From Elusimicrobia bacterium RIFCSPLOWO2_02_FULL_39_32 (lineage in GTDB: Bacteria > Elusimicrobiota > Elusimicrobia > 2-02-FULL-39-32): a stretch of 64,000 nt of DNA. Positions 29,188 through 47,436 of this stretch are shown here, piece after piece. The notes below the pieces were generated by a model. The model was not told where the DNA came from, did no database searches, and worked only from the letters and a program-made list of their open reading frames with translations. Within the stretch, counting starts at the first letter, position 1. Each line of letters starts with the position of its first letter. The stretch is taken from positions 310,001 through 374,000 of the forward strand of contig MGUU01000016.1 of the NCBI GenBank assembly GCA_001800135.1, given 5' to 3'. Made by a program: the position numbers and the translations under genes.

Positions 29188-29296
29188 TTTTTCCTCTTTA
29201 CAACTACAATTTCCTTTCTTGGATTTTAAATGGGGGTATAATTCCAACGCGCATGTTCCGGAGAGTGGAACAATACGATCATTCCCCTAGTTGAAC

Positions 29297-30267: not shown

Positions 30268-30881
30268 GAAAATCTGCCGTAGAATTATTAAAATTACTGC
30301 ATTCACACCAGCTTCGTATCTTCACAACCCTAGATATCTTGACCTTGACTGGAATGAATCGTCCAGCAGCAACTCAGGCTCTCTGCCGTTTGAAAAAACA
30401 ACAGCTCTTAAGTAGGGTTAAACGGGGAGTTTGGGTCAATAAGTTAATTGAGAATCATAATCCTTTTGAAATCGTTCCTTTCCTTAGGAGCCCATGGCCA
30501 TCTTATGTTTCGCTTCATAGCGCGCTTGCGGATCATGGATTAATAGAAGAAATCCCTCATGTTATCTATGCAGTTACATCGGCTAGCCCTAAAAATTATC
30601 AAACAGATATGGGAGAGTTTCATATTCATCATCTTCCAAAGCATCTTATGTGGGGTTATGAAATTAAACAGATGGGGCAGGGATCTTTTCCTATGGCAGA
30701 CCCTGAGAAAGCGTTTTTAGATATGGTCTATCTGGCTTTGGTTCCTCGCTCGCCTATTGAGTTAGTTCAGAAGAGAGGAAGAAAGTGGCGCTTAAATCTG
30801 CAAAAGTTAAGTGAATATGCGCGGAAGTTTAATTTTCCACCTTTAATCACCTACCTGACTAAAAACAATTTATTTAGATGA
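30264..30881 (+). CDS. AbiEi-type winged-helix antitoxin/regulator
   Basis: 205 residues. The N-terminal 60 residues form a winged-helix pattern (FTTLDILTLTGMNRPAATQALCRLKKQQLL) followed by a wing (RVKRGVWV). The C-terminal part has the YVSLHSALADHGLIEE and FPMADPEKAFLDM segments typical of AbiEi-like proteins, which act as antitoxins and autorepressors. It overlaps the toxin by 4 bp and ends tail to tail with the lipoprotein gene, sharing the last 12 bp (30870-30881). Confidence 0.8.
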   Translation: MRKSAVELLKLLHSHQLRIFTTLDILTLTGMNRPAATQALCRLKKQQLLSRVKRGVWVNKLIENHNPFEIVPFLRSPWPSYVSLHSALADHGLIEEIPHVIYAVTSASPKNYQTDMGEFHIHHLPKHLMWGYEIKQMGQGSFPMADPEKAFLDMVYLALVPRSPIELVQKRGRKWRLNLQKLSEYARKFNFPPLITYLTKNNLFR

Positions 30882-31433: not shown

Positions 31434-32498
31434 TTATGGGTTGGCTTCCTCTAAAAATTGTTGCTCGTGTAAAATTAATTGATCCTTTAGAGCTTCTGCG
31501 GCGCTCTTGCCAGCCTCCTCTAAAGCGTTTAACGCAGATTGGTTTAATTCTCTATGGAACCCTTTAGCATTCACATGCGCGGAAGCAATGGTTTTACCAT
31601 CTCCCTTTTTCTGCACAGAGACATTGCCTTCAGCAGTATAAACTCGATTGCTAAGAACCAAACCGCCCTTCATTAAATATATTTCACCCACTATCTCCAA
31701 ACTTGGATTTTCCTTTTGCAGCACATAGCCAAAGGGAGAAAGAGCCCCCATAAAACTAGAATTAAAAGCCAAAGCTCCATTTTCCAAACCTGACACTTTC
31801 ACGGAAAGAGTAAAGCCTTTTAAAAGCTCCATGGTTTTTTGGATCTCATTTTGAAGAAGCGATTTAAGTTCATTGGTATCCTTAATTTGCCCCTCAAAAA
31901 ATTCCACATCTTCTCCTACACTCTCCAAAATTTTACTTGCCTGCTTCAACATTCTTATTCCCAGCCAGACTTTTCCCTCTAAGGAGGCTCTTTTCCCTCT
32001 TCCATAAAGTTCTAGCGCGCTTAAACTTTGAGATTTCTTATTTTTTAACTGTCTTTCTCTTTCTTCCCAAGCAGACCCTTTAGAATAGCTGGTTAATACA
32101 TACACATCATATTTTTCCAAAGAAAAATTTCTATCCAAACGAGTCGTTTTCTCAAAATACCAATCCACTAATTGAACTCCAAGCAAATTAGATTCACTCT
32201 TAGAGCGCAGCTGTCTGGAAAGATGTTTTTCTAATTCTGTTGTTTCTTCCTGAAACAGAGAGCGCACCTGTACACCCACAAATTGAGAAATTTTAGACAG
32301 AGCGTCTTTTATGGCTGATTCTTGCGCTGCTTGCAGAGAATCACAGCTAGAACAGAGTCCGACAAAATAAAGAAATTCTTGAGATTGAGGTGGCTTTTCT
32401 ATCCACACAGGTTTTATTTTGGAAGAAGATTCGCGAATCAGCTGAGGTTTGGGGGCACAAGAAGGAAGAATAAAAAAAAGAGTTAAAATGAAACCCAA
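31434..32498 (-). CDS. LPP20-like lipoprotein with extra C-terminal domain
   Basis: 354 residues from a TTG start (no ATG or GTG lies in frame between the preceding stop and this codon). The lipobox ILPSC places the lipidated Cys at 14. IKPVWIEKPP, FVGLCSS and AAQESAIKDALSKISQFVGVQV form an LPP20-like first half of about 150 residues. The second half (about 200-340) has alternating strands and helices (LSVKVSGLENG...) that I cannot assign. It lies 47 bp downstream of the CsgG-like gene and 15 bp upstream of the next lipoprotein, so it is the middle gene of the operon. Export and lipidation are well supported; the role is not. Confidence 0.7.
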   Translation of the reverse strand: MGFILTLFFILPSCAPKPQLIRESSSKIKPVWIEKPPQSQEFLYFVGLCSSCDSLQAAQESAIKDALSKISQFVGVQVRSLFQEETTELEKHLSRQLRSKSESNLLGVQLVDWYFEKTTRLDRNFSLEKYDVYVLTSYSKGSAWEERERQLKNKKSQSLSALELYGRGKRASLEGKVWLGIRMLKQASKILESVGEDVEFFEGQIKDTNELKSLLQNEIQKTMELLKGFTLSVKVSGLENGALAFNSSFMGALSPFGYVLQKENPSLEIVGEIYLMKGGLVLSNRVYTAEGNVSVQKKGDGKTIASAHVNAKGFHRELNQSALNALEEAGKSAAEALKDQLILHEQQFLEEANP

Positions 32499-32545
32499 AA
32501 ACTGAGATTGAATTGTGAAAGACGATGAAAAATTAAAAATTTTAA

Positions 32546-33562
32546 CTATTTAACCACCCCTTGATTTTTTAATTCCTTAAGGTCAGACTGCATTCTTTTA
32601 ACGTTTTCCTGTCCCTTTAAATAAGCGGGATCCGGCTTAAAAACATAGGCTTTCTTCATCGCTTCTAAAGCCTCATCATACTGACTTACACACTGATAGG
32701 CTAATCCCAAATTCCAATAAGCTTTTGCAATGGTTCCTGCTTTTATCTCAGGATTCATCTCTGCAGACTTGGTTGTATCTTTGAAAACTTTCATAGCATT
32801 CGGATAATCATTAATTTGCACATAGCGAATCCCTTGTTCTAGAGTAGGAAGAGCTCCATCTTTAGCAAAAGCAAGATATACGGTTTCGCTCCAAGGAATA
32901 ATCGCTTTTGTAAAAATATTAAGCCCTTCTTTTAAAGCACAAGATAAGATCGCCTCTTTATCTAAAGGTTCAGGAGTGGCGTCTTTAGCTGTGGTTTTAT
33001 TGGTGCAAACCCCTGAAATTTTTTTACTCTTAATGATTTCTCCTGTTTCCACAGAAACCACATCCATGCTGCCTGTCACTGTTCCTACCCCCTGGCGCTT
33101 ATAATATTTACAATCATAGTCCTCGTAAATTGTTTTCCCTTCAGAATCTTTTCCTTTAGCCCTTTTACATCTCGTATTTTCTGAGGTCATATCCTCATTA
33201 TATTTTCCTTCCACATGGCCTGTAAAAATAACCGCGCTAGATAGAAGTTTTCCTATTCTTAATCTTTTAGATGAATCTGCTAGATCTGAATGAGAAAGGG
33301 TTAATTCTCCTAATATTTGACGAAGTTGGCTGCGATCTACCACCTTAAACTGTTTCGCTTCCACAAGCGTTTCTTTTAAACCGCCTAAAAATCCTTGAGA
33401 CATGTCCCCAGTCATTTCACCAATTACCACCTGTTTATATGGGGACATGTTTACTTCTGCGGGATGCATGATTTGTACAGGAATTTTAACAGCAGTCGCG
33501 CAACCTATTAAGGAAGGCATCAAGAATAGCGCAAAGAAAAAATTTATTTGCCTCTTCTGCAT
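32546..33562 (-). CDS. CsgG-like lipoprotein with C-terminal TPRs
   Basis: 338 residues from ATG 33562, chosen because it puts a lipoprotein signal at the N-terminus (MPSLIGC, Cys21); a TTG at 33598 would add 12 residues. Residues about 40-200 follow the CsgG/LpoB-type fold: VVIGEMTGDMSQGF, FKVVDRSQLRQILGEL, AVIFTGHVEG and GSMDVVSVETGEII. The C-terminal third (about 225-330) contains TPR-like helices (AYWNLGLAYQCVSQYDEALEAMKKAYVF). CsgG-like proteins usually sit in or at the outer membrane. First gene of a three-lipoprotein operon, so the products may form one envelope complex (inference). Just upstream lies the truncated vapC. Confidence 0.78.
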   Translation of the reverse strand: MQKRQINFFFALFLMPSLIGCATAVKIPVQIMHPAEVNMSPYKQVVIGEMTGDMSQGFLGGLKETLVEAKQFKVVDRSQLRQILGELTLSHSDLADSSKRLRIGKLLSSAVIFTGHVEGKYNEDMTSENTRCKRAKGKDSEGKTIYEDYDCKYYKRQGVGTVTGSMDVVSVETGEIIKSKKISGVCTNKTTAKDATPEPLDKEAILSCALKEGLNIFTKAIIPWSETVYLAFAKDGALPTLEQGIRYVQINDYPNAMKVFKDTTKSAEMNPEIKAGTIAKAYWNLGLAYQCVSQYDEALEAMKKAYVFKPDPAYLKGQENVKRMQSDLKELKNQGVVK

Positions 33563-33609
33563 GGATAAAATTATCTCACTTTCCTCTCGTGGAGTCAATC
33601 CTGCCGTTT

Positions 33610-33708
33610 CTATAAATCCTCTGATATTATAAGCGCATTTTCATGGTGACTATCTTCTGAATTAAGCAGAGCAAAAATTGCGCTTGTATCTAACAAAATG
33701 CTAGCCAT
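33610..33708 (-). pseudogene. Truncated PIN-domain toxin (VapC-like), first 32 residues only
   Basis: The reading frame begins ASILLDTSAIFALLNSEDSHHENA, the standard first strand and helix of a PIN-domain ribonuclease with the first catalytic Asp, then runs into TAG after 32 residues. Full-length VapC is about 130 residues, so the other catalytic acids are missing. Its ATG overlaps the end of the upstream antitoxin gene by 8 bp, as in intact vapBC pairs. The lipoprotein operon begins 48 bp further on, so the 3' part was deleted or replaced. Confidence 0.75.
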
Positions 33709-33862
33709 GGACATGCCTGCTTAATTCTTTATCTAAATCTAATTTGCCAAGCCGAAAAGAACCAATCAAATTTTTCATCTGTTTTCCCGTATAGATACGA
33801 AGCGTTCGTTTCCCTACTGAACGTAATGCGTCTCGTATAGGTTCTCTAGACTCTAAACTCAT
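33701..33862 (-). CDS. VapB-like antitoxin, orphaned
   Basis: 53 residues (MSLESREPIRDALRSV...). Short, basic, and overlapping a truncated PIN-domain gene, which is the basis for the call. The sequence alone does not clearly show a known DNA-binding fold. It starts 17 bp after the HigA-like gene ends, so it may be read from the same transcript. It could remain as a solitary antitoxin or regulator after loss of the toxin. Confidence 0.55.
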   Translation of the reverse strand: MSLESREPIRDALRSVGKRTLRIYTGKQMKNLIGSFRLGKLDLDKELSRHVHG

Positions 33863-33878
33863 AGAACAACCTCTCCCT

Positions 33879-34220
33879 CTAAGCAGCGACTAATTTTTTA
33901 ATAACTGGGACAAATTGTTTTGCCTTCTTTTCAGATATACAAAGGGGAAAGAATTTTAATCCAAGCGCCTTGGCCATCTTTGAAATACGAGAAATGGATG
34001 CAGATTGTAGTCCTCCGCCTTTGAGGTCCCGCGAAATAGCGCTTTTTTGGGTATGGAGAACTTTAGCAAGATCGGTATATGTCCAGTGTCTTCGTTCCAA
34101 TGCATTGAGTATTTGTACTTCAAGCTGGAATGCCGGCCATGTTTCTTCGAAAAGTTTTTTAAATTCTGGATCATCCATTTCACGATCAGCGATCGTTTTA
34201 AATTTTCCTTTAGTTTTCAT
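33879..34220 (-). CDS. higA: HigA-type helix-turn-helix antitoxin
   Basis: 113 residues. An XRE-type helix-turn-helix lies at about 44-95: TYTDLAKVLHTQKSAISRDLKGGG...SISRISKMAKALGL. The N-terminal ~40 residues, with DDPEFKKLFEETWPAFQLE, match the HigA-like antitoxins paired with Gp49-like toxins. The start ATG 34220 is preceded by AGGAGAAAACC. The toxin gene is upstream, the HigBA order, separated by 103 bp that contain a large hairpin. The protein probably represses the promoter at 34761-34787. Confidence 0.8.
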   Translation of the reverse strand: MKTKGKFKTIADREMDDPEFKKLFEETWPAFQLEVQILNALERRHWTYTDLAKVLHTQKSAISRDLKGGGLQSASISRISKMAKALGLKFFPLCISEKKAKQFVPVIKKLVAA

Positions 34221-34257
34221 GGTTTTCTCCTATAACACATTAATGTACAACCATTCC

Positions 34258-34330
34258 TGACTGAGCTTCAGCGAAGAAATGCCGCTTCATTAAGAAGTTA
34301 TAAGAAAGCGGCTTCGCTGAAGCTCAGTCA
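34258..34330. repeat. Perfect 19-bp inverted repeat between higB and higA
   Basis: TGACTGAGCTTCAGCGAAG (34258-34276) is the exact reverse complement of 34312-34330, and inside it GCCGCTT (34281-34287) pairs with AAGCGGC (34306-34312). The result is one long, strong hairpin. It includes the last codons and the TGA stop of the toxin gene (34324-34326). No U-tract follows on the minus strand, so it is not a simple intrinsic terminator. It could limit read-through, protect an mRNA end, or be the footprint of a palindromic mobile repeat. Confidence 0.8.
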
Positions 34331-34743
34331 TAGTAAGTACCCTCCTTAACACGTTTCAAATAGTCTTGTTTGTAACGAATGGCAATTTTTAAACATTCCA
34401 AGTCCAATTTCGTCATTTGTTGTGAATGCTTGCGATAAGCGTTAGTGATAATAACCTTTGCTCCTGCAATTGTGAAGTTGAAAAACCGTTCATCCCGCGG
34501 CTTAAAAGCATAAATTTTATTTTCCTTGTTTTCTATACGATAGAGTGTTAATGGAAATAAAGTCCCGTACGCGGAATCGCAAAATAGTTTTACAATTTGC
34601 AAAAAACGCACTCTAGATTGAGTTGAGAGCTCTTTATAATATTCCAGTCCGGGAAGTTTACCATCTTCCGTATAATACCACTCTGCCGTAAAGTAACGGC
34701 CACTATAGTAAATAAAACCTTCTCTATTAGGAACTATTAACAT
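34324..34743 (-). CDS. higB: HigB / Gp49-like RelE-superfamily toxin
   Basis: 139 residues. GKLPGLEYYKELSTQSRVRFLQIVKLF, then YRIENKENKIYAFKPRDERFFNFTIAGAKVIITNAYRKHSQQMTK, then a helix ending RYKQDYLKR, reproduces the layout of phage-derived Gp49-like/HigB mRNA interferases. AAAAGGAGTT sits 6 nt before ATG 34743. The two C-terminal Tyr are encoded within the inter-gene hairpin. Paired with the HTH antitoxin downstream. Confidence 0.8.
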   Translation of the reverse strand: MLIVPNREGFIYYSGRYFTAEWYYTEDGKLPGLEYYKELSTQSRVRFLQIVKLFCDSAYGTLFPLTLYRIENKENKIYAFKPRDERFFNFTIAGAKVIITNAYRKHSQQMTKLDLECLKIAIRYKQDYLKRVKEGTYYD

Positions 34744-34760
34744 TTTAACTCCTTTTAGAG

Positions 34761-34787
34761 GTTAACATATATGTGAACTATTGTCAA
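34761..34787 (-). promoter_or_regulatory. higBA promoter with operator palindrome
   Basis: On the minus strand TTGACA (34782-34787) is followed by an imperfect 18-bp palindrome (34761-34778, GTTCACATATATGTTAAC, one mismatched pair) that fills the spacer and reaches the -10 region (TAACCT at 17 bp spacing). This is a standard position for an autorepressor operator, most likely bound by the HigA-like protein. A strong ribosome site follows. Confidence 0.55.
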
Positions 34788-34837
34788 GGCGGCGCCGGGA
34801 TGGCTAAAATGGAAAATTCTTATTTTCATTTTTAGAA

Positions 34838-36772
34838 CTATTTTCCCTTGATTAACTTTGCTTTTAAGATGTTGAGTTTATCTTTTACAGGGGCTGTTAG
34901 GTCAAGATTAAGAACTGTTTGATAAGCTTTAATCGCTTGGCTAAATCTTTTTTCCTGAGTATATAGATAAGCTAAATTAAGATGGGCTTCGACCCGTAAA
35001 GGTTCTAGTTCAATCGCTTGTTGAAAAGATTTTTCAGATTCCTCAAATTTCCTTAAATTTCCATAAATAATTCCTAAATTGTTATAAAGAGAATAATCTC
35101 CTCTAGAATTTGACCTTAATTTCAAAGCTCTTTCATAAAAAATTTGCGCTTTGGAAAAAAAATTGTTTTGAAAATAAAAAAAGGCTAGCGCTTTAAGAGC
35201 CTCTTTATTTTTTGGCTCTAAATCAATCGCTTTTAAATAAAAACCTTCTGCTAAAAGATCATTTTGCTCACTTAAAATCTTCCCAAGATTATAATACACC
35301 CCGCTAACATTAGGATTTAATTGCAATGCCATCTGAAAAGCCAACTTTGCCTTCTCCAATTCTTTATTTTCCGCATAAAGCATCCCAAGATTATTTAACG
35401 CCCTGTTATTACTTGGATAGAGTCTGACTGCCTCTTCCCAAATTTCTACAGGATTTCTGTACAACTGATTCCTTTTCCAAGTTAATCCTGAAAGTAAAAA
35501 AATATAAAGCAGTAAAAAAAGAACCCTAATTTTTACCTGTCCCAAGAATGAAACTAAGCCCAAACAAAGTCCCCATAAAGGCAGGTAGAGCCTTCTTTCT
35601 ACCATGGCATCATAGATAGGGAAAAAACTTGAGGTGGGAAGCAGTGTAATTACAAACCACAAAAGAGAAAATAGAAAAATTTTGTTCTTCTTAAAAACAG
35701 TTAATGCGGCAGTCCCTAAAAATAAATAAAAAACTAAAGAATAAATAACTTTTAAGTCCAGCAGGCTTTTTATAGGCAGAATAAAATGATCTATGCACTG
35801 GCCGTGTGGAAATAAAAAAAGTTTAAGATAGTTTAAGACCACAACAGTTTGAGTTAAAAAATAAGAATAAGCCGACCAGCTTTTCTCTATTCCCCCTCCC
35901 ATAAAGCCAATTTTTCCAAAATAATAGTGTCTAAATAGGATGTAGAGTATTAAAATGACCCAGTAAAATAAATGAGCACGCCAACGATTTATGAACTTTT
36001 TAAAATCAGAATTGCTTAAGAAAAAATAATCATATAAAAAAACAACTGCTGGCAAGGTCACTGCAATTTCTTTGGAAAAAAGAGCCAAGAAAAATGAAAG
36101 GTAGGAACTTAAAGAGAATAAACGATTTTTTTCAAAAGCTTTTACAAAAAGTAACAGGGAGAGTAAATAGAAAAAAGTTGCTAAACCATCTGAACGGTTA
36201 CTGATATAAGTAACTACTTCTGTTTGGAGAGGGTGGAGCGCAAAAATTAAAGTAACGCCTAAAGAAAAAATATTTCCTAAACTGCTCACTGAACGATCCC
36301 CTAAAATATTGTCTGAATCGCCGCCTGAATTGTTTTTGAGAGTGGTTGTTTTTAAATGTCCATTCGTAATCTCTTGGCTCAAGGAAATTGGTATTTTAAA
36401 AGTATCTCTGGAATAAAAAAATATTCTCTTTGTAAGAATAAAGATAAGGAGAGCGGTCAAGCTATGCAGCAAAACATTGAAAAGATGGTAAGTGAAGGGA
36501 TTGTTAGCCCCTAAAGCATAATTAAAGATAAAGGTTAAAAATAGAATAGGGCGGTGAGGAACGTTACGGTTGGCAAGAATCTGATCTGTGCGATAAAGCA
36601 GCTTTTGAGGAAGATGGTCCCAGTTTCTAATATCTGGATTTTGAACAATATTGCTCCAGTCATCAAAAATAAAAGGCGCATTAAGGGAATTGAGATAGAT
36701 AAAAAAAGGGAAAAAAAACGCTGCTAAGTTTATCCAGAAAAATAAAGAAGGCTTGTTAATCAAGGAATTCAT
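34838..36772 (-). CDS. TMTC-like membrane glycosyltransferase (GT-C fold) with TPRs
   Basis: 644 residues. The N-terminal ~420 residues hold about ten membrane segments. The first loop carries FDDWSNIVQNPDIRNW and HRPILFLTFIFNYALG...YHLFNVLLHSL, the signature of the DUF1736/TMTC group of O-mannosyltransferase-like proteins, where the acidic DD pair is in the catalytic loop. The C-terminal part (about 430-635) contains five or six TPRs (NNLGMLYAENKELEKAKLAFQMALQLNP and similar). Inner membrane; may glycosylate exported proteins such as the neighbouring giants (inference). A TATAAT lies at 36788-36793, 16 nt before ATG 36772. The gene follows the end of the next giant gene by 86 bp and is in the same direction. 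Confidence 0.8.
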   Translation of the reverse strand: MNSLINKPSLFFWINLAAFFFPFFIYLNSLNAPFIFDDWSNIVQNPDIRNWDHLPQKLLYRTDQILANRNVPHRPILFLTFIFNYALGANNPFTYHLFNVLLHSLTALLIFILTKRIFFYSRDTFKIPISLSQEITNGHLKTTTLKNNSGGDSDNILGDRSVSSLGNIFSLGVTLIFALHPLQTEVVTYISNRSDGLATFFYLLSLLLFVKAFEKNRLFSLSSYLSFFLALFSKEIAVTLPAVVFLYDYFFLSNSDFKKFINRWRAHLFYWVILILYILFRHYYFGKIGFMGGGIEKSWSAYSYFLTQTVVVLNYLKLFLFPHGQCIDHFILPIKSLLDLKVIYSLVFYLFLGTAALTVFKKNKIFLFSLLWFVITLLPTSSFFPIYDAMVERRLYLPLWGLCLGLVSFLGQVKIRVLFLLLYIFLLSGLTWKRNQLYRNPVEIWEEAVRLYPSNNRALNNLGMLYAENKELEKAKLAFQMALQLNPNVSGVYYNLGKILSEQNDLLAEGFYLKAIDLEPKNKEALKALAFFYFQNNFFSKAQIFYERALKLRSNSRGDYSLYNNLGIIYGNLRKFEESEKSFQQAIELEPLRVEAHLNLAYLYTQEKRFSQAIKAYQTVLNLDLTAPVKDKLNILKAKLIKGK

Positions 36773-36858: not shown

Positions 36859-39800
36859 TTACTGTTGAACATGATATAACTTTAACTCAAGTCCTGTTTT
36901 TTCAACCTGCTCTACTAGATGGGTAAAACCTTCTCGCAGTTTCATGCGGCTGATCTCATTTAGATCCATGGAAGCAAACCCTTTCACCAGCTTTAAAAAC
37001 CCAGCCAGCTCTTTTCCATCAGCTTTAAATAAGATGTCCCATCCCACTTTAAGTGAATCCTCACTCCACCAACCTTCCCAATTTTTAGATTTTACTCGGA
37101 ACAATAAGAGATCAAAGGAATCCTCTCTTAAACCATTTTTTTCAACTAAAGATCTAAAATTAAATTTCCCTTGCGTCAGTTCCTGATAAAGCTGCGCAAC
37201 CTTTAAATCTTGAGAGACGATTCTAACTTTTCTTAAAAAACCTTCCACTTCTTCTTCATTTAAAGTTCCTTGATCTTGAACCAATACCAACTCTATCATT
37301 CTTCTTTCTTTTAGAGCAAAACCACTATTATTTTCTTCCATCTTTCTTCTCTGAAGCGATGCCGCCCCTTTAACATTTACACCATTCTCTTCTTCAAAGG
37401 ATTGAATAAACTCATTCAGTTTATCCGCTAACAGGGGTAAATCAAATACACTGATCACGATCCTTAAATTTCTATCTCCAATATTCTCTTTTACAGTTTG
37501 AACCCAGTCTGGTTTTAATATCTCAGGAGGAATCTGCTCATAAGATAAACCCATCCCTTTTGAAACCTGCTCAATAATAGCTTGAGTGCCATTCTCAAAT
37601 TTTTCAGACCGATCATTAAAATCATCTTTAAAGAATGAAAATCCTCTAAAAAGTTCTGTTTCTAAATGACCCGTGGCAGCGAAGTGACGGAAAAGAATTG
37701 AAAGTTCTCCTAAGAAACTGAACCTAAAAATATCATTTCTTAAAATAAAGACTAATTTAACAATTCCATAAAGATATTGTATTGGTTTTAAAAAATAGAG
37801 CAAGAAGTCTTTTAAAATAGGAGGGGTGCGCCGCGCAATTTGATGCTGATTGAGCCAAACTCGCCCCCCTTCCTGAGTCAACATCCAGGGAAGAATTAAA
37901 AGGTGAATCACAAAATTAAAAGCTCTATTGTCAAAACCTCTGACCCATCCCCGATTCAAAGTAATCCTATTTTTGCCTGAATCATAATAGGCGAGTCTCC
38001 AACCCATTTCTTGAGAACTTTTAATTTCCAGTTCCACCTGCGGATAATAAGACCTTATAAGGTTCAGCCAAAAAGGATCTACCTTATCCCCATTATTTTC
38101 ATTTCCCATTAAATAAACTATTAGATTTGAAAACCCAAGAGCTAAAAACGAAACAAACCAAATCAGAGGGAAAATAGAATCTGGCCAGATTAAAATAAGA
38201 ACTAAAGAAGCTGCCAAAGCAAAAACAGAGTGCCTTATATCTAGCGGCTCTTTCTTCTTCACAGGCTCCACAACCTCTTTCATGGCATCAACTTGGCTCA
38301 GCAACTCTCTTAAAACCTCTAATGAAGATGGTTCCTCCGGTGTAGGAACCTTAAGCTCTAAGACCATTTTAATTGAATCACTGAAATCTATTGAGTCTTG
38401 GGATAAAGCATTCATAGCGGGTAATAGACGACTCACTAGCTGCTTAAATTCAAGATAAACTTGCGGATTTTTATCAATCAGAATCGCAATATTAAACAAC
38501 TCTTCTATGAGCGCGGTTTTATTCACATTAACGTTAAATTTTCCCCGCCCCGCATAATCTAAAAAGTAAAGATATTCTTCAAAGTTTGTTGGAAAACTTT
38601 TGCTCCATTCATATTCATCAGGGTTACCGCTAAAAGCATTAGAGAATAGAGCCTTTGCCAATCTATAATCCTCATCTAGCTCATCCAATATCTTTTTAAA
38701 TTTCATTGCCTCACTAATATTCTTAAGAGCCAGTTCCTGCTTCATTTTCTTATAATGGGACTCATTTTTGTATCGCTCCTCAATACTTCGCAGAAGTTTT
38801 AAAAGTTCCTCAGCTTCTCTATCGTCCTTGGGAACAATGGTATTCATAATCTCATCATACTGCGCTATATCTTTTTCCGCAAAAAAGAGCAGTCCGGCTT
38901 GATCCGTGTATATAAAATGATCCACTGCTTTCCATGCTTCATCCTTTGTTAGTCCAACTGCGGGCTGGGTCAAAAAATTCATTAATTTTATTTGCAGTTC
39001 CATTCTCTCACTTCTGATTTTTTCCCAAAGCCTTGTTTCAGATTTTATTCTGTATTCTTCTTCTTGCTCAAACAATTGAGCAAGCTCATCTATCTTTTTA
39101 TGAGCTTCTTGAAAACTCAATCCAGACCTCATCAAGGCATGCAGCATCAGTTCCCTGGCAGCAAGCGCTTGAATCATTCTTTTTCTAATCTTTCTATCTA
39201 AACTGGCTAACCCCAGGGATAATTTTTTAGACAATAAAAAAAGCGCATGGTCGCTTTCTCCAAGCATTAAACGGGTTAAAAATGCTAGATAATAGTGATA
39301 AGAATCATCCTCCTTCTTAGTGACCCAAGTTTGATCCATTACCACTGGCCAAATAGTTTTCATGCCTAAGGTTGGATAGCGCTTTAGCTGCATTGCAAAC
39401 TCATTTTGCAGCTGTCTAGCTATTTTTTGAGCGCTTAAAGGCACAGCGTTCGCTTTCATTCTAAGCTGAGAAAAAGTTCTTTCAAAAAAAGCATTTAAGA
39501 AATAAGAAACAAATTTAGGATAAACTGAAACCACGGTTTGAACAACATCAAACGTAAAATTTTCATAAATACCTGTTACAGGAATAACGATTTCATCATT
39601 AAATCCTCTCACAAGAGGCAAAACAGAATTGAACGCGGCTTTTGCTTCAGAAGAAAAATCACCCTGCAAAAGCATCCAAATAAAATGTTCCGCTTCTCCC
39701 TGATGCAATGAGGTTACGATTGGATCATTTGAATCTTTTAAACTGCCTCCTACAATAAAATCAAGATAGCGCAAGGCAATGGCCTGCATGCTTAAACGCT

Positions 39801-42800
39801 GCTCTAATCTTTCTTCCCCATCTCTAACTATAGGATAAGCTCGTCCTTTAGGCGGCAAGCGCAATTCATAACCAAAACTGCCGTCTGACTTTTTCCCCCA
39901 AATAATTCGATGCCCTAACTCTCCAACATAATGGTCTCTCCTGCCAACAGACTTGCCAAACATGGCGGCTCCAATGCCTTGCAATCCGATTTTGACAAAA
40001 GTAGCTTCTCTGGTTACTTTTTTTATAGTTTTATTTTTTTTGTATCCAGAAACTTCAGCCAATAAACTGTTTACAACTTCAATGGACAGGATCGCGTTAA
40101 AACCATAACTATCTTTAAGGATGCCGAACAATTTTGAACTTAAATCCACTCCTCCATCCTGCACATAAGAAGGATCTTCAAAATCTTGAGGCCTAAAATA
40201 CTTAATATTATGGCTAAACACTTTTCTTTTACTTTTAACATGTCCTGACCACGCGATCTTTAAATTATGTATTTGATTCTTGGCTCTAGTTGTATCCATG
40301 TTTCTAGCTTTGGCAAACTCTTCCACTAAAGAATTGATTTCTTTCATTAAATAATAATAGACGAAAGTTCTAGCAGCCTCTGAATTTTTAATTTTCTTTC
40401 TTAAAATCTCTTTTTCTATTTCAGACCATAAGATAGATTTCCTTCCGGAAAAATCTTTTTCACGCAAAAAACCAGTTTGATCTAAAAGAGCGATCTCTAT
40501 TTCTTTGCTGCCGATGCTTAGAGCGATCTGGATTTCCTGCTGTTCAGGGATAAAAGCCAATAAACGATTCTCCTTGTTTTCATAAATTCTGCTGACTTTG
40601 ATTTTTCTAGGGATCATGGCCTTTTGAACTCCGCTCACTAAAAAATCCTCATTCATCAGCTCTCCAAGCGCAAATTCTTCTCCCCCTGCAAACAAATAAA
40701 TATTATTTTTAAATTCTTTGTCTGGAGTAGAATAACCATCCACAAAAGCCCTGAGCGCTTTTCCTAAATCCCCTGCAATTACTCGCAAAAATTGAATGGC
40801 GCGAGGATCTTTTGCTTTTAACTGTTGGCTGATCATTTTAAAAGTATTTTCTATCGCAGCCGGTTCACCTTTTTTTATTTTTTTTTGTTCAAAAAGCAAT
40901 CTAAAATTTTCCGGAACAGCCTGTCTCCCGCGATCAATTAACTCTTTCCTCTTGCTTTCATTTAAATTGACTTCCATAATTCCTATATCCTGTGTTTCTA
41001 TAGAAATCTCATTCCAATCTTGAGACTGCCTTTGGGCATTAATATCATGACTTTTAACTCTGGCAGCCAGCATGTCTAAAATAGTAGAACCTGTATCATT
41101 TAATTTAACCATCCAGTGAGTATCACCTAAGAAAATTTTTGCCACCTCATCTACCAGATCAGCATTCGATAAACCCAAAACAACGGTATCCTCCTCCTCT
41201 CCTTTAAAAATATCTATAGGACGGTTGCTTACAATCCCTCCGTCAGAAAAATAGTGTAAATCTCCATTGATTCGTATTGTGGGAGGGCGGTAGAAATAAG
41301 GAAAACTTGCGCTGGCTCTTACTGCTTTATAAACCTCAACTTCAGGGCTGTTTTTAGCGTTAAAAATAAAACGATCCCGGGTGGTAAGATCAGTAGCCAC
41401 AATATTTAAATCAATGCCCTGATCTAACAAATCTTGAAAAGTTGGATCTTTAATTTGGCCTGTGGATTCCGTATATTTTTCAAATATTATGTTTCTAACC
41501 CAATTTTCAAAATGAGTTCCTTCATAAAGTCCGGCTTGAGTGCTGAGCTTTAATTTACTTAAAATACCTGTAAACCATGTAGGACGAGACTTTCCATCTG
41601 TAAAAATACGAGGGTCAGTCTGTTCCATAATTTTTTCTAATTGTTTACCGGTATATCCCACAGCCAAAAAAGCAGCGCCTATGGCGCCTACAGAGGTTCC
41701 AGAAAAAGCTTTGAATCTAAATCCTTGCTTTTCTAACTCCTTAATTGCGCCAATATGAGCTAAACCTCTTACGCCTCCGCCTTCCAACACTAAATTTACA
41801 TACCTCACCCCGCCTAGTAATTCATCAAAATGAGTTCTTAAAGGCTGAGTACCCCTTATCAATAACGGCTGTGTTCCTTGAGTTCCTACCAGATCACCTG
41901 TGCCTCGATTCCTTTGCAGGGGTTGAGGATCAGGTTCTGCTGCTGCTCCTCCTCCTGCTCCTAAATTATTACCTGTTTCTGCATCTAAATCCGCTATTCC
42001 GGGCAAAAATCGTTCTCTTAATTCAATTTTTGCCAACTCCACTCCAGGCAAAGCCTCTATGGAATTTTCCAATTTTTTAACATCCACACCTTCAGGAACC
42101 TCTATATCCATGCTAAATTGAAGTTTTTCTCCGCTCGCTTTTCTAAGCCCGCTTCGGACCATTTTCATCCTAATTCTAAAAACAAGCTCTTCCCTCTCTA
42201 TTCTTTCTGTATCTGCCCTATTTGAATTTTCCAGATCACCATCTTCTCCTTCAGGGTTCTGAAGACTCTTTTCTATGATTGTTGTAAAACTAAGCCCTTT
42301 AACATTTATACCTACTTCTCCGGTTTTTTCAGTAATGTCATAAACTAAACCATTGCGATCAGAAGCGATCACATTTAACTTTCCTCTTTGTTTATTCAAG
42401 GCTCTATATTTAAGCCACTGCTCTTGAGTCACTTTAATATTCACTAAATTCTGAATCATTTCTGAAATAAGCGATTGAGTATCATGCGTCCCACGGAGAT
42501 GTTCGCCAGTTAATTGGAGAGTGATAATCTCATGACCTTGATTAGTTGTTTTAGTATGAATATCCACAATATTTCCGCAGGACCAAGTAATCCCGGCAAT
42601 TTGATGTAAGATACCTGGAATACTGTAATGCACTTTTATCACTAATTTTACCCTATGGTTATCGGAAGATTTATCGTAAGAGATGTTGTAATTCATTACT
42701 TCTATTGGCTCTTCAACCTTTAGATCCTTAATCCTTTGATTTACATTATAAAGATGAGAATTGGGCTGAAGGTTCATTTCTGGTTTAGTAAAATAAAGTT

Positions 42801-45800
42801 GCGCGCTGGAACGCTTGAATGGATCTTCAGGCGGAAGACTATTCCGATCTATGGGCCAAATAGAGCCAGTTTTCTCGTCAAATTTAAGCAAAAAATCCTT
42901 ATTCTCAATAGACTGAAACACCGCTTGAAAATTACTCTTAAAATCATTGCTCATTTGGACTCCAACATAGCTAAACTCTGGCCTGGTCCTTAATTCCATT
43001 TTAATCTCTTCTAAACGCTGCAACAATTTATAAAGCCAATGCGCGTTTTCTCCGCTCTCTCCTCTTAAAAAATCTGGTTGAGTCATTAACTTAATTTCTA
43101 TTCCGCCAAACTTGATATTGGTATAGACAAATTTTCCATCTTCCTTTTCTTTTCTTTTTACTTCCCATGCTCTATCTTCATCCACAGCCAATCCTATGTG
43201 AGCATGAGTAGGATCTAAAGTTCTCTTCCATTCTTTAACTCCAGGCTCTTTTCTATTCTCTCTTAAATTGATTTTATATTCACTGCTAGACCATGCTTTA
43301 TCCAAAGATTCCTGATCTGGAAACACAATCGCAACCCCAAGAAGATCACTCACCAAAATTCCTTTTATTGGATCTTTGGGCAATCCACCTTTACGGATCA
43401 CTTTATTAATGGTTTGAGGAGCTCCTTTAGGCCGCACCAAAACCTGAAGATAAGGAATCTCTCGCTCTTTTAAATAATTCTCAACATTCTTCTTCATGAT
43501 CTCAGCGTCTGCAACTTGCATAACTCTTAAGAACTTTTCATAATCCTCCTTGCCAATGATCTTAATTAAAGATGCGATTAAAAGCTCTGAAGCGATATCC
43601 TCTCTTAAAACTCTATCCGCAAGCGTTGCCCAGATCAGACGAATCTGCATCTGTATGTTGCTGGTGATTCTCTCGCTTTCTTCTTCCGGCGCTGTTTCTA
43701 ATGCATATAAACGATCTGCTAAAACCAAAAGCAAAGACTCTGGATCTCCAACCATTTTTAGGCTAAGGTCAATCTGATTCATTAGAGCGTCAGAAGGGCC
43801 TTTAACATCAATTGGAAAATCATAAGGAATCTGATTAACAGATCGCAAACGGTTTAAGCGTTCTACAATCTCATTTAAATCCTGATCTTTTAGTTCAAAA
43901 AAATCCACGCCTTTCATTTCCCGATTAATTAAACGTTTTATGCTTTCAGCGATCTCCTCTTTTGATCTTTCATCTTTAAATTGAATGCCATGCTTTTCCA
44001 ATAAATTGCTAATCCTTTCACTGGATTTAACTGGTTTTTCTTGCACAAGCTCTTTCATTAACTCTACAATAACCTCTTCTTCTTTTTTACCATCTTCCAA
44101 TGCGACTTTTGACTGTAAGAGTTCCTTAATCTTTTTGATGATCCTCTCGGAAAGTTTTTCTGTAGTTAATGAAACCGCTTTTTCTTTAAAATGCGCGTTC
44201 AATAAATCCTCTATTTGTTTTGCAGTCACTGGGCTGTCTTCTGGAAAATGTTTATGCAGCAAGGTAGCAAAAATCGTATTCGCAGAAGCTCCCCAACGGA
44301 AAAGCGAGATACTAAGCTCGCTCGCTTGGTCTTGATCCTCTTTTTTCTCATAAAATATCGTTGCCAGCTCTTTAAAAATTTTAGAGCTCCCTGTTTCCGC
44401 CTCCTGCTTAATCTCTTCCCAATGAAGATTTAATTCTTCAATTCTTCTTTTCTTATTCTCACGCAGCTCCTCTGGATTTCCAACCTCATCCTCCCCATGA
44501 GTGGATTCTGCCAGCGTTGTCCCATCCTCTAGCAATGACAAAATAGGAACGGATTGTGGCAATACTTCTACAGAATAAGCCAGATCAACTATTTCCGGCA
44601 TCTCCATCATTGGTTTTAATCTTCTCAGCAAATTCATCCAATAGACTAAAGGTAGGTAACGATCCATGGTCTCGCTATAATCTATGTACTTAGAAAAATC
44701 ATTCTGTTCTAAGGAATCTTTAATCAAAGATTCAAGACGATGAAGCGGTTCTGGATGACCTTTTTTCTCTAAGTATTTAATAATCTCGCGAATTCCCTTA
44801 GGAGGTTCTTTAAGCAAATCCTGCTTGCCTGTAATATCCATTGTGATGTATAATCCCTGCTCTCGACGACGCTCATTCTCAGCTATTTTTTTATAATGAC
44901 GCTTAAGTGATTTTTTAACTTCTGCCAAGGCAAGTGTGGCATGTTCATGCAAATTCTCCTGCATATTTTCTCCAACTCCAATTGAAACTCCAGACCCGCC
45001 TAACCCCTGAAAAATACGCGCGTAAGGAAGAGGCAAATTGTTTTCATAAACCCAAAGATTATATTTTTGATGTAATTTAATAGTTGCGGAAGTTGCAATT
45101 TTGACAAGATGCAACATGGGTTTAAAGAAAATTATAAGAATGACAATCCGTAAGAAAAGGTCAGGAACAAAACTAAGCGCTAAGAGCGGAGCAAAAGGGA
45201 GTAAATAAGGCGCTAAAAAGAAAAAGGATAGGAGTGTCAATACAGGCAAATCAATGATTAAAACTTTTACAACTGTTTTTAAAGAACTAAAAATTGACTT
45301 TATAGTCTGCAAACTGACAAAAGATTGAGGTAACGCATCTAACGGCTGGGTAACTCTAATTTTAAAATCTGATGTTAGGGCTTTTTGATAACGGGTTTCT
45401 CTTCTACCTTCAGCTGTTATAGCTACTAGCTGCAAAGGAAAAAAACTGCTTTGGATTGTCTCATTTATAAAATTAATAATTTCTTCTCTTAGTTCTGTTA
45501 GTTTTGTCTGCCAACTTTCACCAGATTTTTTTGCTCTTATAATCCATTTAACAGTTAAAACGCTAAAAGAATATAAAGGGTGAGCTAAGGCAAAGAAGCC
45601 TGTAGCCCAGACAAGCCCTGTCTTCACTAAATCCCAATCCCCTAAAATAAGACCTGCTCCCATGATGAGAAATCCAATAAGAGGAAACACTTTTGTCTCC
45701 CAAATCGGCTCTTTTTCAGTCACAGCAACCTTAAATTCTTCTGATTTTTCCCCGAACTTTTCTTTAAGGCTCAAGAAACGAATTGCTGCAACCCTATTGC

Positions 45801-46596
45801 GCTCAATCTTTAACCTTGAAAGAAAGGAAAATGGAACTCCATTCAAAAACTGTTTATCTTTAACAACCTCTCTGGTTCTGCGTGGATGAAACCCATGCAT
45901 CTGTCGTATGATTTTATTCTGAAAATCTGAGTCTGTAAGAGTATCTAGACGATCTAAAAGCTGCGCAAATTCTTTCTTTAAGCCTCCCATTTTATGAATA
46001 AAATCAGTTAAAGAATTCCTTTGTCTTAACTGACTTTTTGTGTCAATAGGAAGCGCCTGCGGAGATATTCTTTCCTTAGGCAAAGGAGTTTCCAGCTTTA
46101 AAGTTGAAAGAAGCATTCCAAGATTACCTTGACCAGCCATAAGCTGATCCATTTTCCGCATTGTGTTTTGAACTATAAACTCAAACGCTTTCTTTTTTTC
46201 TCCTTTATAAAATCCAATTTTATATTCTTTGTCATTTTTCACAAAAGGCTCGCTAAAAGACAAACCCTTCTTAATTTCTTTAATGATCTTATTAATTTGT
46301 TCCTCAATCTCTTTATCCTTATTTCCAATTTTAAAATCTTCAAGCCTTTCTGCGTACTGATCCAAAGCATGGAAAAATTTCTGAGAATCAAGCCCTGAAT
46401 CTGCGCCAAAATCCAGAGATTCCGCGCTTTCTGATTTTATCCGATTCATGGAGTCCAGATTAATCTTGGATTTGGGAACTCTTTTAGCTTCAGCAAAGGG
46501 AGGCAAAAGTGTGCTAAAAAGCAGAGAGCTTACAACAGTAACTGCCGCTATTTTTAAACAGTTTTGATTTTTTCTTTTTATCCAAAAACTAAACAT
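36859..46596 (-). CDS. Giant exported protein: RelA/SpoT-like module, ACT domains, patatin lipase, ROK-like domain
   Basis: 3,245 residues. Signal peptide 1-37 (MFSFWI...PPFAEA). Two or three membrane segments near 310-370 and 440-510. A RelA/SpoT-like region: degenerate HD half with LLHKHFPEDS (about 770; HD is changed to HK) and LADRLYAL (about 960; H lost), synthetase-like half with RPKGAPQTINKV (about 1060), GIEIKLMT and GENAHWLYKL (about 1185), then two ACT-like domains (about 1325 and 1415). Patatin-like phospholipase: GGGVRGLAHIG (about 1608), GTSVG nucleophile (about 1634), DGG (about 1785), so the Ser/Asp dyad looks intact. ROK/ASKHA-like domain with LSIGSKEIEIALLD (about 2030) and VGELGH (about 2226). 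Hydrophobic segments near 2700 and 2900, then the shared C-terminal module (ISVFDLPLL, about 3052) ending HVQQ. Lipase activity is plausible; (p)ppGpp hydrolysis is unlikely. No clear ribosome site. Confidence 0.92.
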   Translation of the reverse strand: MFSFWIKRKNQNCLKIAAVTVVSSLLFSTLLPPFAEAKRVPKSKINLDSMNRIKSESAESLDFGADSGLDSQKFFHALDQYAERLEDFKIGNKDKEIEEQINKIIKEIKKGLSFSEPFVKNDKEYKIGFYKGEKKKAFEFIVQNTMRKMDQLMAGQGNLGMLLSTLKLETPLPKERISPQALPIDTKSQLRQRNSLTDFIHKMGGLKKEFAQLLDRLDTLTDSDFQNKIIRQMHGFHPRRTREVVKDKQFLNGVPFSFLSRLKIERNRVAAIRFLSLKEKFGEKSEEFKVAVTEKEPIWETKVFPLIGFLIMGAGLILGDWDLVKTGLVWATGFFALAHPLYSFSVLTVKWIIRAKKSGESWQTKLTELREEIINFINETIQSSFFPLQLVAITAEGRRETRYQKALTSDFKIRVTQPLDALPQSFVSLQTIKSIFSSLKTVVKVLIIDLPVLTLLSFFFLAPYLLPFAPLLALSFVPDLFLRIVILIIFFKPMLHLVKIATSATIKLHQKYNLWVYENNLPLPYARIFQGLGGSGVSIGVGENMQENLHEHATLALAEVKKSLKRHYKKIAENERRREQGLYITMDITGKQDLLKEPPKGIREIIKYLEKKGHPEPLHRLESLIKDSLEQNDFSKYIDYSETMDRYLPLVYWMNLLRRLKPMMEMPEIVDLAYSVEVLPQSVPILSLLEDGTTLAESTHGEDEVGNPEELRENKKRRIEELNLHWEEIKQEAETGSSKIFKELATIFYEKKEDQDQASELSISLFRWGASANTIFATLLHKHFPEDSPVTAKQIEDLLNAHFKEKAVSLTTEKLSERIIKKIKELLQSKVALEDGKKEEEVIVELMKELVQEKPVKSSERISNLLEKHGIQFKDERSKEEIAESIKRLINREMKGVDFFELKDQDLNEIVERLNRLRSVNQIPYDFPIDVKGPSDALMNQIDLSLKMVGDPESLLLVLADRLYALETAPEEESERITSNIQMQIRLIWATLADRVLREDIASELLIASLIKIIGKEDYEKFLRVMQVADAEIMKKNVENYLKEREIPYLQVLVRPKGAPQTINKVIRKGGLPKDPIKGILVSDLLGVAIVFPDQESLDKAWSSSEYKINLRENRKEPGVKEWKRTLDPTHAHIGLAVDEDRAWEVKRKEKEDGKFVYTNIKFGGIEIKLMTQPDFLRGESGENAHWLYKLLQRLEEIKMELRTRPEFSYVGVQMSNDFKSNFQAVFQSIENKDFLLKFDEKTGSIWPIDRNSLPPEDPFKRSSAQLYFTKPEMNLQPNSHLYNVNQRIKDLKVEEPIEVMNYNISYDKSSDNHRVKLVIKVHYSIPGILHQIAGITWSCGNIVDIHTKTTNQGHEIITLQLTGEHLRGTHDTQSLISEMIQNLVNIKVTQEQWLKYRALNKQRGKLNVIASDRNGLVYDITEKTGEVGINVKGLSFTTIIEKSLQNPEGEDGDLENSNRADTERIEREELVFRIRMKMVRSGLRKASGEKLQFSMDIEVPEGVDVKKLENSIEALPGVELAKIELRERFLPGIADLDAETGNNLGAGGGAAAEPDPQPLQRNRGTGDLVGTQGTQPLLIRGTQPLRTHFDELLGGVRYVNLVLEGGGVRGLAHIGAIKELEKQGFRFKAFSGTSVGAIGAAFLAVGYTGKQLEKIMEQTDPRIFTDGKSRPTWFTGILSKLKLSTQAGLYEGTHFENWVRNIIFEKYTESTGQIKDPTFQDLLDQGIDLNIVATDLTTRDRFIFNAKNSPEVEVYKAVRASASFPYFYRPPTIRINGDLHYFSDGGIVSNRPIDIFKGEEEDTVVLGLSNADLVDEVAKIFLGDTHWMVKLNDTGSTILDMLAARVKSHDINAQRQSQDWNEISIETQDIGIMEVNLNESKRKELIDRGRQAVPENFRLLFEQKKIKKGEPAAIENTFKMISQQLKAKDPRAIQFLRVIAGDLGKALRAFVDGYSTPDKEFKNNIYLFAGGEEFALGELMNEDFLVSGVQKAMIPRKIKVSRIYENKENRLLAFIPEQQEIQIALSIGSKEIEIALLDQTGFLREKDFSGRKSILWSEIEKEILRKKIKNSEAARTFVYYYLMKEINSLVEEFAKARNMDTTRAKNQIHNLKIAWSGHVKSKRKVFSHNIKYFRPQDFEDPSYVQDGGVDLSSKLFGILKDSYGFNAILSIEVVNSLLAEVSGYKKNKTIKKVTREATFVKIGLQGIGAAMFGKSVGRRDHYVGELGHRIIWGKKSDGSFGYELRLPPKGRAYPIVRDGEERLEQRLSMQAIALRYLDFIVGGSLKDSNDPIVTSLHQGEAEHFIWMLLQGDFSSEAKAAFNSVLPLVRGFNDEIVIPVTGIYENFTFDVVQTVVSVYPKFVSYFLNAFFERTFSQLRMKANAVPLSAQKIARQLQNEFAMQLKRYPTLGMKTIWPVVMDQTWVTKKEDDSYHYYLAFLTRLMLGESDHALFLLSKKLSLGLASLDRKIRKRMIQALAARELMLHALMRSGLSFQEAHKKIDELAQLFEQEEEYRIKSETRLWEKIRSERMELQIKLMNFLTQPAVGLTKDEAWKAVDHFIYTDQAGLLFFAEKDIAQYDEIMNTIVPKDDREAEELLKLLRSIEERYKNESHYKKMKQELALKNISEAMKFKKILDELDEDYRLAKALFSNAFSGNPDEYEWSKSFPTNFEEYLYFLDYAGRGKFNVNVNKTALIEELFNIAILIDKNPQVYLEFKQLVSRLLPAMNALSQDSIDFSDSIKMVLELKVPTPEEPSSLEVLRELLSQVDAMKEVVEPVKKKEPLDIRHSVFALAASLVLILIWPDSIFPLIWFVSFLALGFSNLIVYLMGNENNGDKVDPFWLNLIRSYYPQVELEIKSSQEMGWRLAYYDSGKNRITLNRGWVRGFDNRAFNFVIHLLILPWMLTQEGGRVWLNQHQIARRTPPILKDFLLYFLKPIQYLYGIVKLVFILRNDIFRFSFLGELSILFRHFAATGHLETELFRGFSFFKDDFNDRSEKFENGTQAIIEQVSKGMGLSYEQIPPEILKPDWVQTVKENIGDRNLRIVISVFDLPLLADKLNEFIQSFEEENGVNVKGAASLQRRKMEENNSGFALKERRMIELVLVQDQGTLNEEEVEGFLRKVRIVSQDLKVAQLYQELTQGKFNFRSLVEKNGLREDSFDLLLFRVKSKNWEGWWSEDSLKVGWDILFKADGKELAGFLKLVKGFASMDLNEISRMKLREGFTHLVEQVEKTGLELKLYHVQQ

Positions 46597-46961: not shown

Positions 46962-47213
46962 TTAACGGTAAACTTCTTTGCGATGTTTGATGCGGTAAAG
47001 ATAAATCAGTTTATTTCGATCATCAATTCTATAAAGAGCTCTATAATTTCCTATTCGAACTCTATAACCCTCTTCATTTGTTAATTTAACAATCCCAATG
47101 GGTCTTGGGTCCTGTCTTAATTCTAGAAGTTTAGATTTAATTCGCTCAAAAAGAGGTGAGTCTAGTGAATCTAGATCCCTTTGCGCGGAAGGAAGAACTT
47201 TAAGCTGATACAC
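46962..47213 (-). CDS. relE: RelE/ParE-family toxin
   Basis: 83 residues: MYQLKVLPSAQRDLDSLD...RIKSKLLELRQDPRPIGIVKLTNEEGYRVRIGNYRALYRIDDRNKLIYLYRIKHRKEVYR. The helix pair, L-x-x-x-x-GYRVRIGNYRALY strands and a basic C-terminal RIKHRKEVYR with the final Tyr are typical of active RelE-type ribosome-dependent RNases. It overlaps the antitoxin gene by 14 bp, so translation is coupled. Confidence 0.88.
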   Translation of the reverse strand: MYQLKVLPSAQRDLDSLDSPLFERIKSKLLELRQDPRPIGIVKLTNEEGYRVRIGNYRALYRIDDRNKLIYLYRIKHRKEVYR

Positions 47214-47436
47214 TCTTCCTTAAATGTAAATATTCTTCAAAACTGATCGCTTTTTTTTCGTCTGCTCTTTGTTTTTTAAAGTCTAATAAATCTTCTTTTA
47301 GTTCTTCTTCTTCAATTCTATCTTGAAGGGCTTTTTCTACAAAAAAATTTTGTTTAATTCCATGTGAGTTACAAAAACTTCTAATTAATTCTGCCAGTTT
47401 TGAATCAATTCTTACTGCAAAAGTTGTTTTGGCCAT
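47200..47436 (-). CDS. relB: RelB-like ribbon-helix-helix antitoxin
   Basis: 78 residues. MAKTTFAVRIDSKLAELIRSFCNSHGIKQNFFVEKALQDRIEEEEL has the strand-helix-helix layout of a ribbon-helix-helix DNA-binding domain; the acidic, charged C-terminus would wrap the toxin. A near-ideal GGAGGTGA ribosome site lies 6 nt before ATG 47436. Upstream there is a consensus promoter overlapped by a long perfect palindrome, presumably the operator for autorepression. Confidence 0.82.
   Translation of the reverse strand: MAKTTFAVRIDSKLAELIRSFCNSHGIKQNFFVEKALQDRIEEEELKEDLLDFKKQRADEKKAISFEEYLHLRKSVSA

What the first reader, a model, noticed from the sequence alone, without database searches (positions are those of the whole stretch)
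41230..44350. RelA/SpoT-like module fused to an intact patatin lipase in an exported giant protein
The region keeps the order HD half, synthetase half and two ACT-like domains of long RelA/SpoT proteins, but the HD pair is HK and ADRLH is ADRLY, so hydrolysis is unlikely. It is followed within 300 residues by a patatin domain with oxyanion GGGxRG, GTSVG and DGG all present. Stringent-response enzymes are cytosolic; one in an exported protein could be an effector that perturbs a target cell. Some RelA-like toxins are known to be delivered to other bacteria, which makes an effector role conceivable.
Basis: partly seen in the sequence, partly recalled or inferred. Interest (0 to 1): 0.75.

Follow-up and report, generated by a model that had tools for sequence, protein, structure and literature searches.

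The report
Crippled RelA/SpoT module beside intact patatin
A 3245-residue envelope protein of an uncultured Elusimicrobiota bacterium carries a stringent-response enzyme module that has lost its hydrolase and acceptor sites but keeps its ATP-phosphate/metal site; the module recurs in other giant, apparently exported proteins of the phylum, which suggests a repurposed nucleotide-handling domain, fused here to an intact-looking lipase.

Summary
One ORF (36859-46596, minus strand, 3245 aa) of an Elusimicrobiota genome encodes a divergent long-RSH (RelA/SpoT) module (HD, SYNTH, TGS-like, ACT-like), then a patatin lipase with all motifs. Homology is firm: a profile of the module hits only RSH/SAS structures (best E 1.8e-19), and hhalign against canonical RSHs gives 99.5%. 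The hydrolase site is broken. The synthetase half is half-dead: the acceptor loop (PKxNxYQSLH) and an adenine-stacking Arg are gone, but donor residues R, K, K, D, E remain. The same module sits in giant ORFs of nine Elusimicrobiota genomes; seven divergent copies keep R, K, K, D in 7/7 and E in 6/7. dN/dS in the module is 0.07-0.16, as low as in the patatin, so it is functional and not a relic. The patatin neighbour occurs only in two species of one genus. Three relatives have a signal-like N-terminus and no other membrane segment, so the module is probably exported there; for the window protein topology is unsettled. The genome keeps a separate intact RSH. A ppGpp-making effector is not supported; a repurposed nucleotide/phosphate-binding module, or a pyrophosphokinase with another acceptor, is. 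New variant of a known kind.

The parts
36859..46596 (-). Giant ORF, 3245 aa, holding all parts below
   Evidence: dN/dS 0.213 over 3244 codons against same-genus G003
46486..46596 (-). N-terminal signal peptide-like segment (MFSFWIKRKNQNCLKIAAVTVVSSLLFSTLLPPFAEA)
   Evidence: sequence; similar N-termini in the 7087-aa and 2298-aa giants of the window and in G027
45631..45690 (-). Predicted membrane segment aa 303-322 (a weaker one follows at 328-348)
   Evidence: Kyte-Doolittle scan
45100..45285 (-). Predicted membrane hairpin aa 438-499
43447..44322 (-). Degenerate HD (hydrolase) half and linker helices of RSH, aa 759-1050; HD->HK, ADRLH->ADRLY, HP histidine absent
   Evidence: dN/dS 0.13
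42997..43449 (-). Divergent RSH synthetase half, aa 1050-1200; keeps R1055, K1057, K1065, D1084, E1167, H1186-W1187, Y1189; lacks Arg at D+5 and PKxNxYQSLH
   Evidence: dN/dS 0.10
42652..42999 (-). TGS-like remnant, aa 1200-1315
   Evidence: second domain; dN/dS 0.07
42007..42654 (-). Two ACT-like domains, aa 1315-1530
   Evidence: weak Pfam hits in the window protein, ACT_4 E=3e-7 in homologue G037
41797..42006 (-). Linker aa 1531-1600
   Evidence: dN/dS 0.41, relaxed compared with flanking domains
41206..41793 (-). Patatin-like phospholipase domain aa 1602-1797, oxyanion GGGVRG, GTSVG (Ser1635), DGG (Asp1785)
   Evidence: dN/dS 0.10
39655..40557 (-). Possible degenerate ROK/actin-like ATPase region aa 2014-2314 (GELGH motif); a lead only
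   Evidence: motif read by eye; no significant profile hit; low-confidence beta-beta-beta-alpha start in AF2
38101..38232 (-). Predicted membrane hairpin aa 2789-2832

Best explanation
The stretch derives from a long-RSH gene (HD-SYNTH-TGS-ACT) that became part of a giant envelope-protein lineage of Elusimicrobiota and was repurposed. It can no longer hydrolyse ppGpp and very likely cannot make it, because the guanine-acceptor loop is gone. It kept the triphosphate/metal half of the active site, so it most likely works as a nucleotide- or phosphate-binding regulatory or structural module of the giant protein. In this genus it sits in cis with an intact patatin phospholipase, which is the part most likely to do chemistry and may be gated by the RSH-ACT module, much as CapV phospholipases are gated by a nucleotide. 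Shown: homology, residue losses and retentions, purifying selection, recurrence, lineage-specific patatin. Inferred: ligand binding, gating of the lipase, location outside the cytoplasm.
For: RSH homology. A canonical RSH and a SAS exist elsewhere in the same genome, so the housekeeping role is covered. HD site broken in all giant-type members read. Donor residues R, K, K, D kept in 7/7 and E in 6/7 divergent copies, while the D+5 Arg is lost in 7/7 and the YQSLH motif in all; 5 of 8 donor positions are among the 9 conserved columns of 104 (hypergeometric P about 7e-5, approximate because the copies are aligned together with canonical RSHs and columns are not independent). Roles of the donor residues from FaRel2 (PMC11782079). 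dN/dS 0.07-0.16 in the module, 0.10 in the patatin, 0.41 in the linker. Patatin motifs complete.
Against: Retention of the catalytic Asp and Glu is more than mere binding needs and leaves catalysis open. The RSH module is not tied to a patatin in the other genomes, so gating a lipase cannot be its general role. No structure of useful confidence (mean pLDDT 37.8 and 32.1). ATP is scarce outside the cytoplasm, which fits poorly with an ATP-binding module there.
Confidence: 0.5

Rival explanations
1. The module is still a pyrophosphokinase, with ATP as donor and a new acceptor (another nucleotide, an RNA end or a protein), used as an exported effector or envelope enzyme.
For: Residues that hold the ATP triphosphate and Mg (R, K, K, D) and the Glu on beta5 are kept in nearly all copies; toxSAS enzymes show that the acceptor can change (PMC11782079); exported alarmone synthetases exist (PMC12691689); three relatives have a signal-like N-terminus and no other membrane segment; the G245 giant also carries a P-loop kinase with GQSGAGKS and a phosphoesterase with its motifs.
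Against: The Arg at D+5 that stacks adenine is lost in 7/7 and the Gln at E+2 in 6/7; the whole acceptor loop is gone; no immunity gene and no dedicated secretion system seen in the window.
Confidence: 0.22
2. A catalytically and ligand-dead scaffold: giant proteins of this phylum take up cytosolic enzyme folds as building blocks.
For: Giants here are mosaics (UDPGP-like, cNMP-binding, HEAT, M23); HD and acceptor sites are lost; the modules have different neighbours in different giants.
Against: Donor-site residues stand out as the conserved ones; low dN/dS is compatible with a scaffold but does not explain that pattern.
Confidence: 0.2
3. Cytoplasm-facing membrane protein: in the window protein the large domains lie inside and the module senses cytosolic nucleotides (this concerns location and is not exclusive of the other readings).
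For: Outer flanks of membrane hairpins in these giants are net positive (+1.05 against -0.05 background, n=22), which the positive-inside rule would put in the cytoplasm; an ATP site makes sense there.
Against: Signal-like N-terminus shared by the giants; relatives G294, G291 and G245 have one and no other membrane segment; the charge bias is weak.
Confidence: 0.25

Closest known systems
Long RSH proteins (Rel/RelA/SpoT)
   Same: Domain order HD, linker helices, SYNTH, TGS-like, ACT-like; detectable sequence homology; RxK...K, D, E and HWxY kept
   Different: No HD metal site, no acceptor loop, embedded in a 3245-aa membrane/envelope protein with a signal-like N-terminus
Exported alarmone synthetases (EAS; PMC12691689)
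   Same: RSH synthetase-family domain with an export-type signal
   Different: EAS described there are SYNTH-only proteins with an active site needed for toxicity; here a long-RSH-derived, HD-containing module without acceptor loop inside a giant protein
toxSAS / CapRel / Tas1 (PMC11782079, PMC9712102)
   Same: Divergent SYNTH domains, some with a changed acceptor
   Different: FaRel2 keeps the G-loop aromatic and the second adenine-stacking Arg, both lost here; no HD remnant in SAS proteins
Patatin-like phospholipases (PlpD, ExoU, VipD, CapV)
   Same: Oxyanion, GxSxG and DGG motifs; nearest solved relatives by sequence
   Different: Fused inside a giant protein after an RSH/ACT module
Giant proteins of Omnitrophota/Elusimicrobiota (PMC10066038, PMC11573180)
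   Same: Very long ORFs, often with many membrane segments and few annotated domains; Elusimicrobiota listed as enriched for huge proteins
   Different: I found no report of RSH modules in them in the papers I could search

Membership tests
Long RSH (Rel/RelA/SpoT) | Sequence homology across HD C-half, linker and SYNTH | tested here: met
Long RSH (Rel/RelA/SpoT) | HD hydrolase metal site (HD pair, ADRxH) | tested here: not met
   HK, ADRLY; broken in every giant-type copy read
Long RSH (Rel/RelA/SpoT) | Synthetase donor (ATP) site | tested here: inconclusive
   R, K, K, D, E kept; S70, R95 and Q147 equivalents lost in the window copy
Long RSH (Rel/RelA/SpoT) | Acceptor G-loop PKxNxYQSLH | tested here: not met
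Long RSH (Rel/RelA/SpoT) | ppGpp synthesis or hydrolysis | not testable with these tools
   needs an assay
Exported alarmone synthetase (EAS) | Sec signal peptide | tested here: inconclusive
   signal-like N-terminus by eye and hydropathy only, no SignalP; further membrane segments
Exported alarmone synthetase (EAS) | Intact SYNTH active site | tested here: not met
   acceptor loop and D+5 Arg lost
Patatin-like phospholipase (PF01734) | Pfam gathering score | tested here: met
   130.4 bits against cut-off 27.7, nearly the full model
Patatin-like phospholipase (PF01734) | GGGxRG, GxSxG, DGG/A motifs | tested here: met
Patatin-like phospholipase (PF01734) | Lipase activity | not testable with these tools
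   needs an assay

The most novel reading that the evidence does not exclude
A phylum-wide family of exported giant proteins carries a long-RSH-derived pyrophosphokinase with a changed acceptor, together with other nucleotide-handling enzymes (kinase, phosphoesterase), and uses them on nucleotides or RNA of neighbouring cells; in this genus a phospholipase is added.
Probability: 0.1. Interest if true: 0.9.

Novelty: new variant of a known kind. Interest (0 to 1): 0.58.

Why it matters
RSH enzymes are the hub of the stringent response and are treated as cytosolic. A recurrent, selectively maintained RSH module in apparently exported giant proteins, with the ATP-phosphate site kept and the acceptor site lost in seven divergent copies, is a specific lead to what the giant proteins of uncultured bacteria do, and it can be tested by expressing a domain of about 400-600 residues.

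Tried and rejected
AF2 with 4 sequences on aa 750-1560 gave mean pLDDT 37.8 and with 2 sequences on aa 1590-2370 gave 32.1; used only as weak support. ROK kinase for aa 2014-2314: proposed from the GELGH motif, not supported by the profile search, not claimed. Omnitrophota as source, my first guess from the giant ORFs: replaced by Elusimicrobiota. The L006 match (G117) is a chance hit on a polynucleotide-phosphorylase-like ORF. Tree of the synthetase region: the giant group separates from canonical RSHs, but branches are saturated, so a single origin is neither shown nor excluded. Relic/pseudogene: rejected by dN/dS. Literature search for an RSH-patatin fusion gave nothing relevant.

Full report
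What was checked. The finding lies in one ORF, window 36859-46596 minus strand, 3245 aa. The window is contig C16 310001-374000 of a 2.5-Mb genome. Elusimicrobiota are listed among bacterial phyla enriched in huge proteins (PMC11573180).

RSH module. Pfam sees only an HD_4 remnant and sub-threshold ACT hits, but profiles built from relatives settle homology. The first profile (A2) finds the canonical RSH in most genomes of the class, mostly at E 1e-8 to 1e-15, and RSH chains at the top of the PDB, E 1.3e-11. With eight giant-type sequences (A7) the best PDB match is Rel at 1.8e-19 and all 18 listed matches are RSH or SAS entries; hhalign against 13 canonical Elusimicrobiota RSHs gives 99.5% over 228 columns. 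An AF2 model of aa 750-1560 is of low confidence (mean pLDDT 37.8); its Foldseek top 32 PDB matches are nevertheless all of the Rel/RelA/SpoT/SAS group. I count that as weak support only.

Catalytic residues. Hydrolase: the HD pair is HK, ADRLH is ADRLY, and the upstream HP histidine is missing. At the HD pair, relatives have HK, YR, AG, CE or SG. Synthetase: roles are taken from FaRel2 (R64, K66, S70, K74 hold the triphosphate; D90 the Mg; R64 and R95 stack adenine; E145 and Q147 contact adenine; Y128 is the acceptor G-loop aromatic; PMC11782079). In seven divergent giant-type copies the R64, K66, K74 and D90 equivalents are kept in 7/7, E145 in 6/7, S70 in 5/7; R95 is lost in 7/7, Q147 in 6/7, and PKxNxYQSLH is lost in all. 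Only nine columns of 104 are conserved in at least six copies, and five of them are donor residues (P about 7e-5, approximate). So it is neither an ordinary synthetase nor a randomly decayed one.

Selection. Between the window and G003, dN/dS is 0.07-0.16 over the HD, SYNTH, TGS-like and ACT parts, 0.10 in the patatin, 0.41 in the linker between them, 0.21 overall. The module is under purifying selection and its boundaries look real.

Distribution. Giant-type modules were found in nine genomes: the window's own G000, and G003, G037, G029, G033 (cut by a contig end), G323 (cut by a contig end), G294, G291 and G245. They span families f1, f6, f20, f21 and f22, the last three outside the class of the window. 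The patatin and following region has its close relative only in G003, and Pfam finds no patatin in the other giants, as far as their contigs reach. The RSH-patatin fusion is thus a feature of one genus; the RSH module is not. The genome has its own canonical RSH (L008) and a SAS (L009).

Patatin. Nearly full-length Pfam match, all motifs, nearest solved sequences PlpD, ExoU, VipD and CapV. Activity is not shown.

Where is it? The ORF begins with a signal-like segment, and similar N-termini (FWIxKKNxNxL...LLFS...PFAEA) occur in other giants of the window and in G027. The ORF also has membrane segments near 303-348, 438-499 and 2789-2832. If 328-348 spans the membrane the module is outside, if not it is inside; charge bias at hairpin flanks weakly favours inside. 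In G294, G291 and G245 the only candidate membrane segment is the N-terminal one, so there export is the simplest reading. No signal-peptide predictor was available.

Mechanism. I judge a nucleotide/phosphate-binding, non-alarmone module most likely, possibly gating the patatin in this genus (0.5). A pyrophosphokinase with a new acceptor is the main rival (0.22). The G245 giant has a P-loop kinase (GQSGAGKS) and a phosphoesterase (SDLHG, GDxxDRG, GNHD) in the same chain as its RSH module, so intact nucleotide chemistry in such proteins is possible; why an exported protein should carry it is unexplained.

Prior art. Exported alarmone synthetases are known (PMC12691689) but the ones described are SYNTH-only and active; that study stopped its iterations to avoid large multidomain RSHs. 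I found no report of RSH modules in giant proteins in the papers I could search; the preprint on giant genes cited in PMC12057145 was not available to read.

Noticed in passing
window 46962-47436 (-): ParE-type toxin (Pfam E=1.3e-10) with an overlapping small antitoxin-like ORF directly upstream of the giant ORF.
   Followed up: partly
window 29494-30881 (+): AbiEii-like nucleotidyltransferase toxin followed by an AbiEi-like ORF: a second toxin-antitoxin pair between giant ORFs.
   Followed up: no
window 10503-12293 (-): Inside the 7087-aa ORF a 242-aa stretch is duplicated at 355-aa spacing with 93% identity.
   Followed up: partly
L077 6139-13236 (-): G245 giant (2366 aa) combines a signal-like N-terminus, a cytidylate-kinase-like domain with intact P-loop, a calcineurin-like phosphoesterase with intact motifs and the RSH module.
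   Followed up: partly
window 3-21263, 22351-29247, 36859-46596 (-): Giant ORFs share a similar N-terminal signal (FWIxKKNxNxL...LLFS...PPYAEAS); G027 has it too.
   Followed up: partly
window 31434-36772 (-): LPP20-like lipoprotein, CsgG-like protein and a TPR membrane protein lie downstream of the giant ORF; same order in G003.
   Followed up: no
L052 4929-8999 (+); L075; L076; L077: A recurring domain with a motif like IQDxH near the N-terminus of several Elusimicrobiota giants.
   Followed up: no
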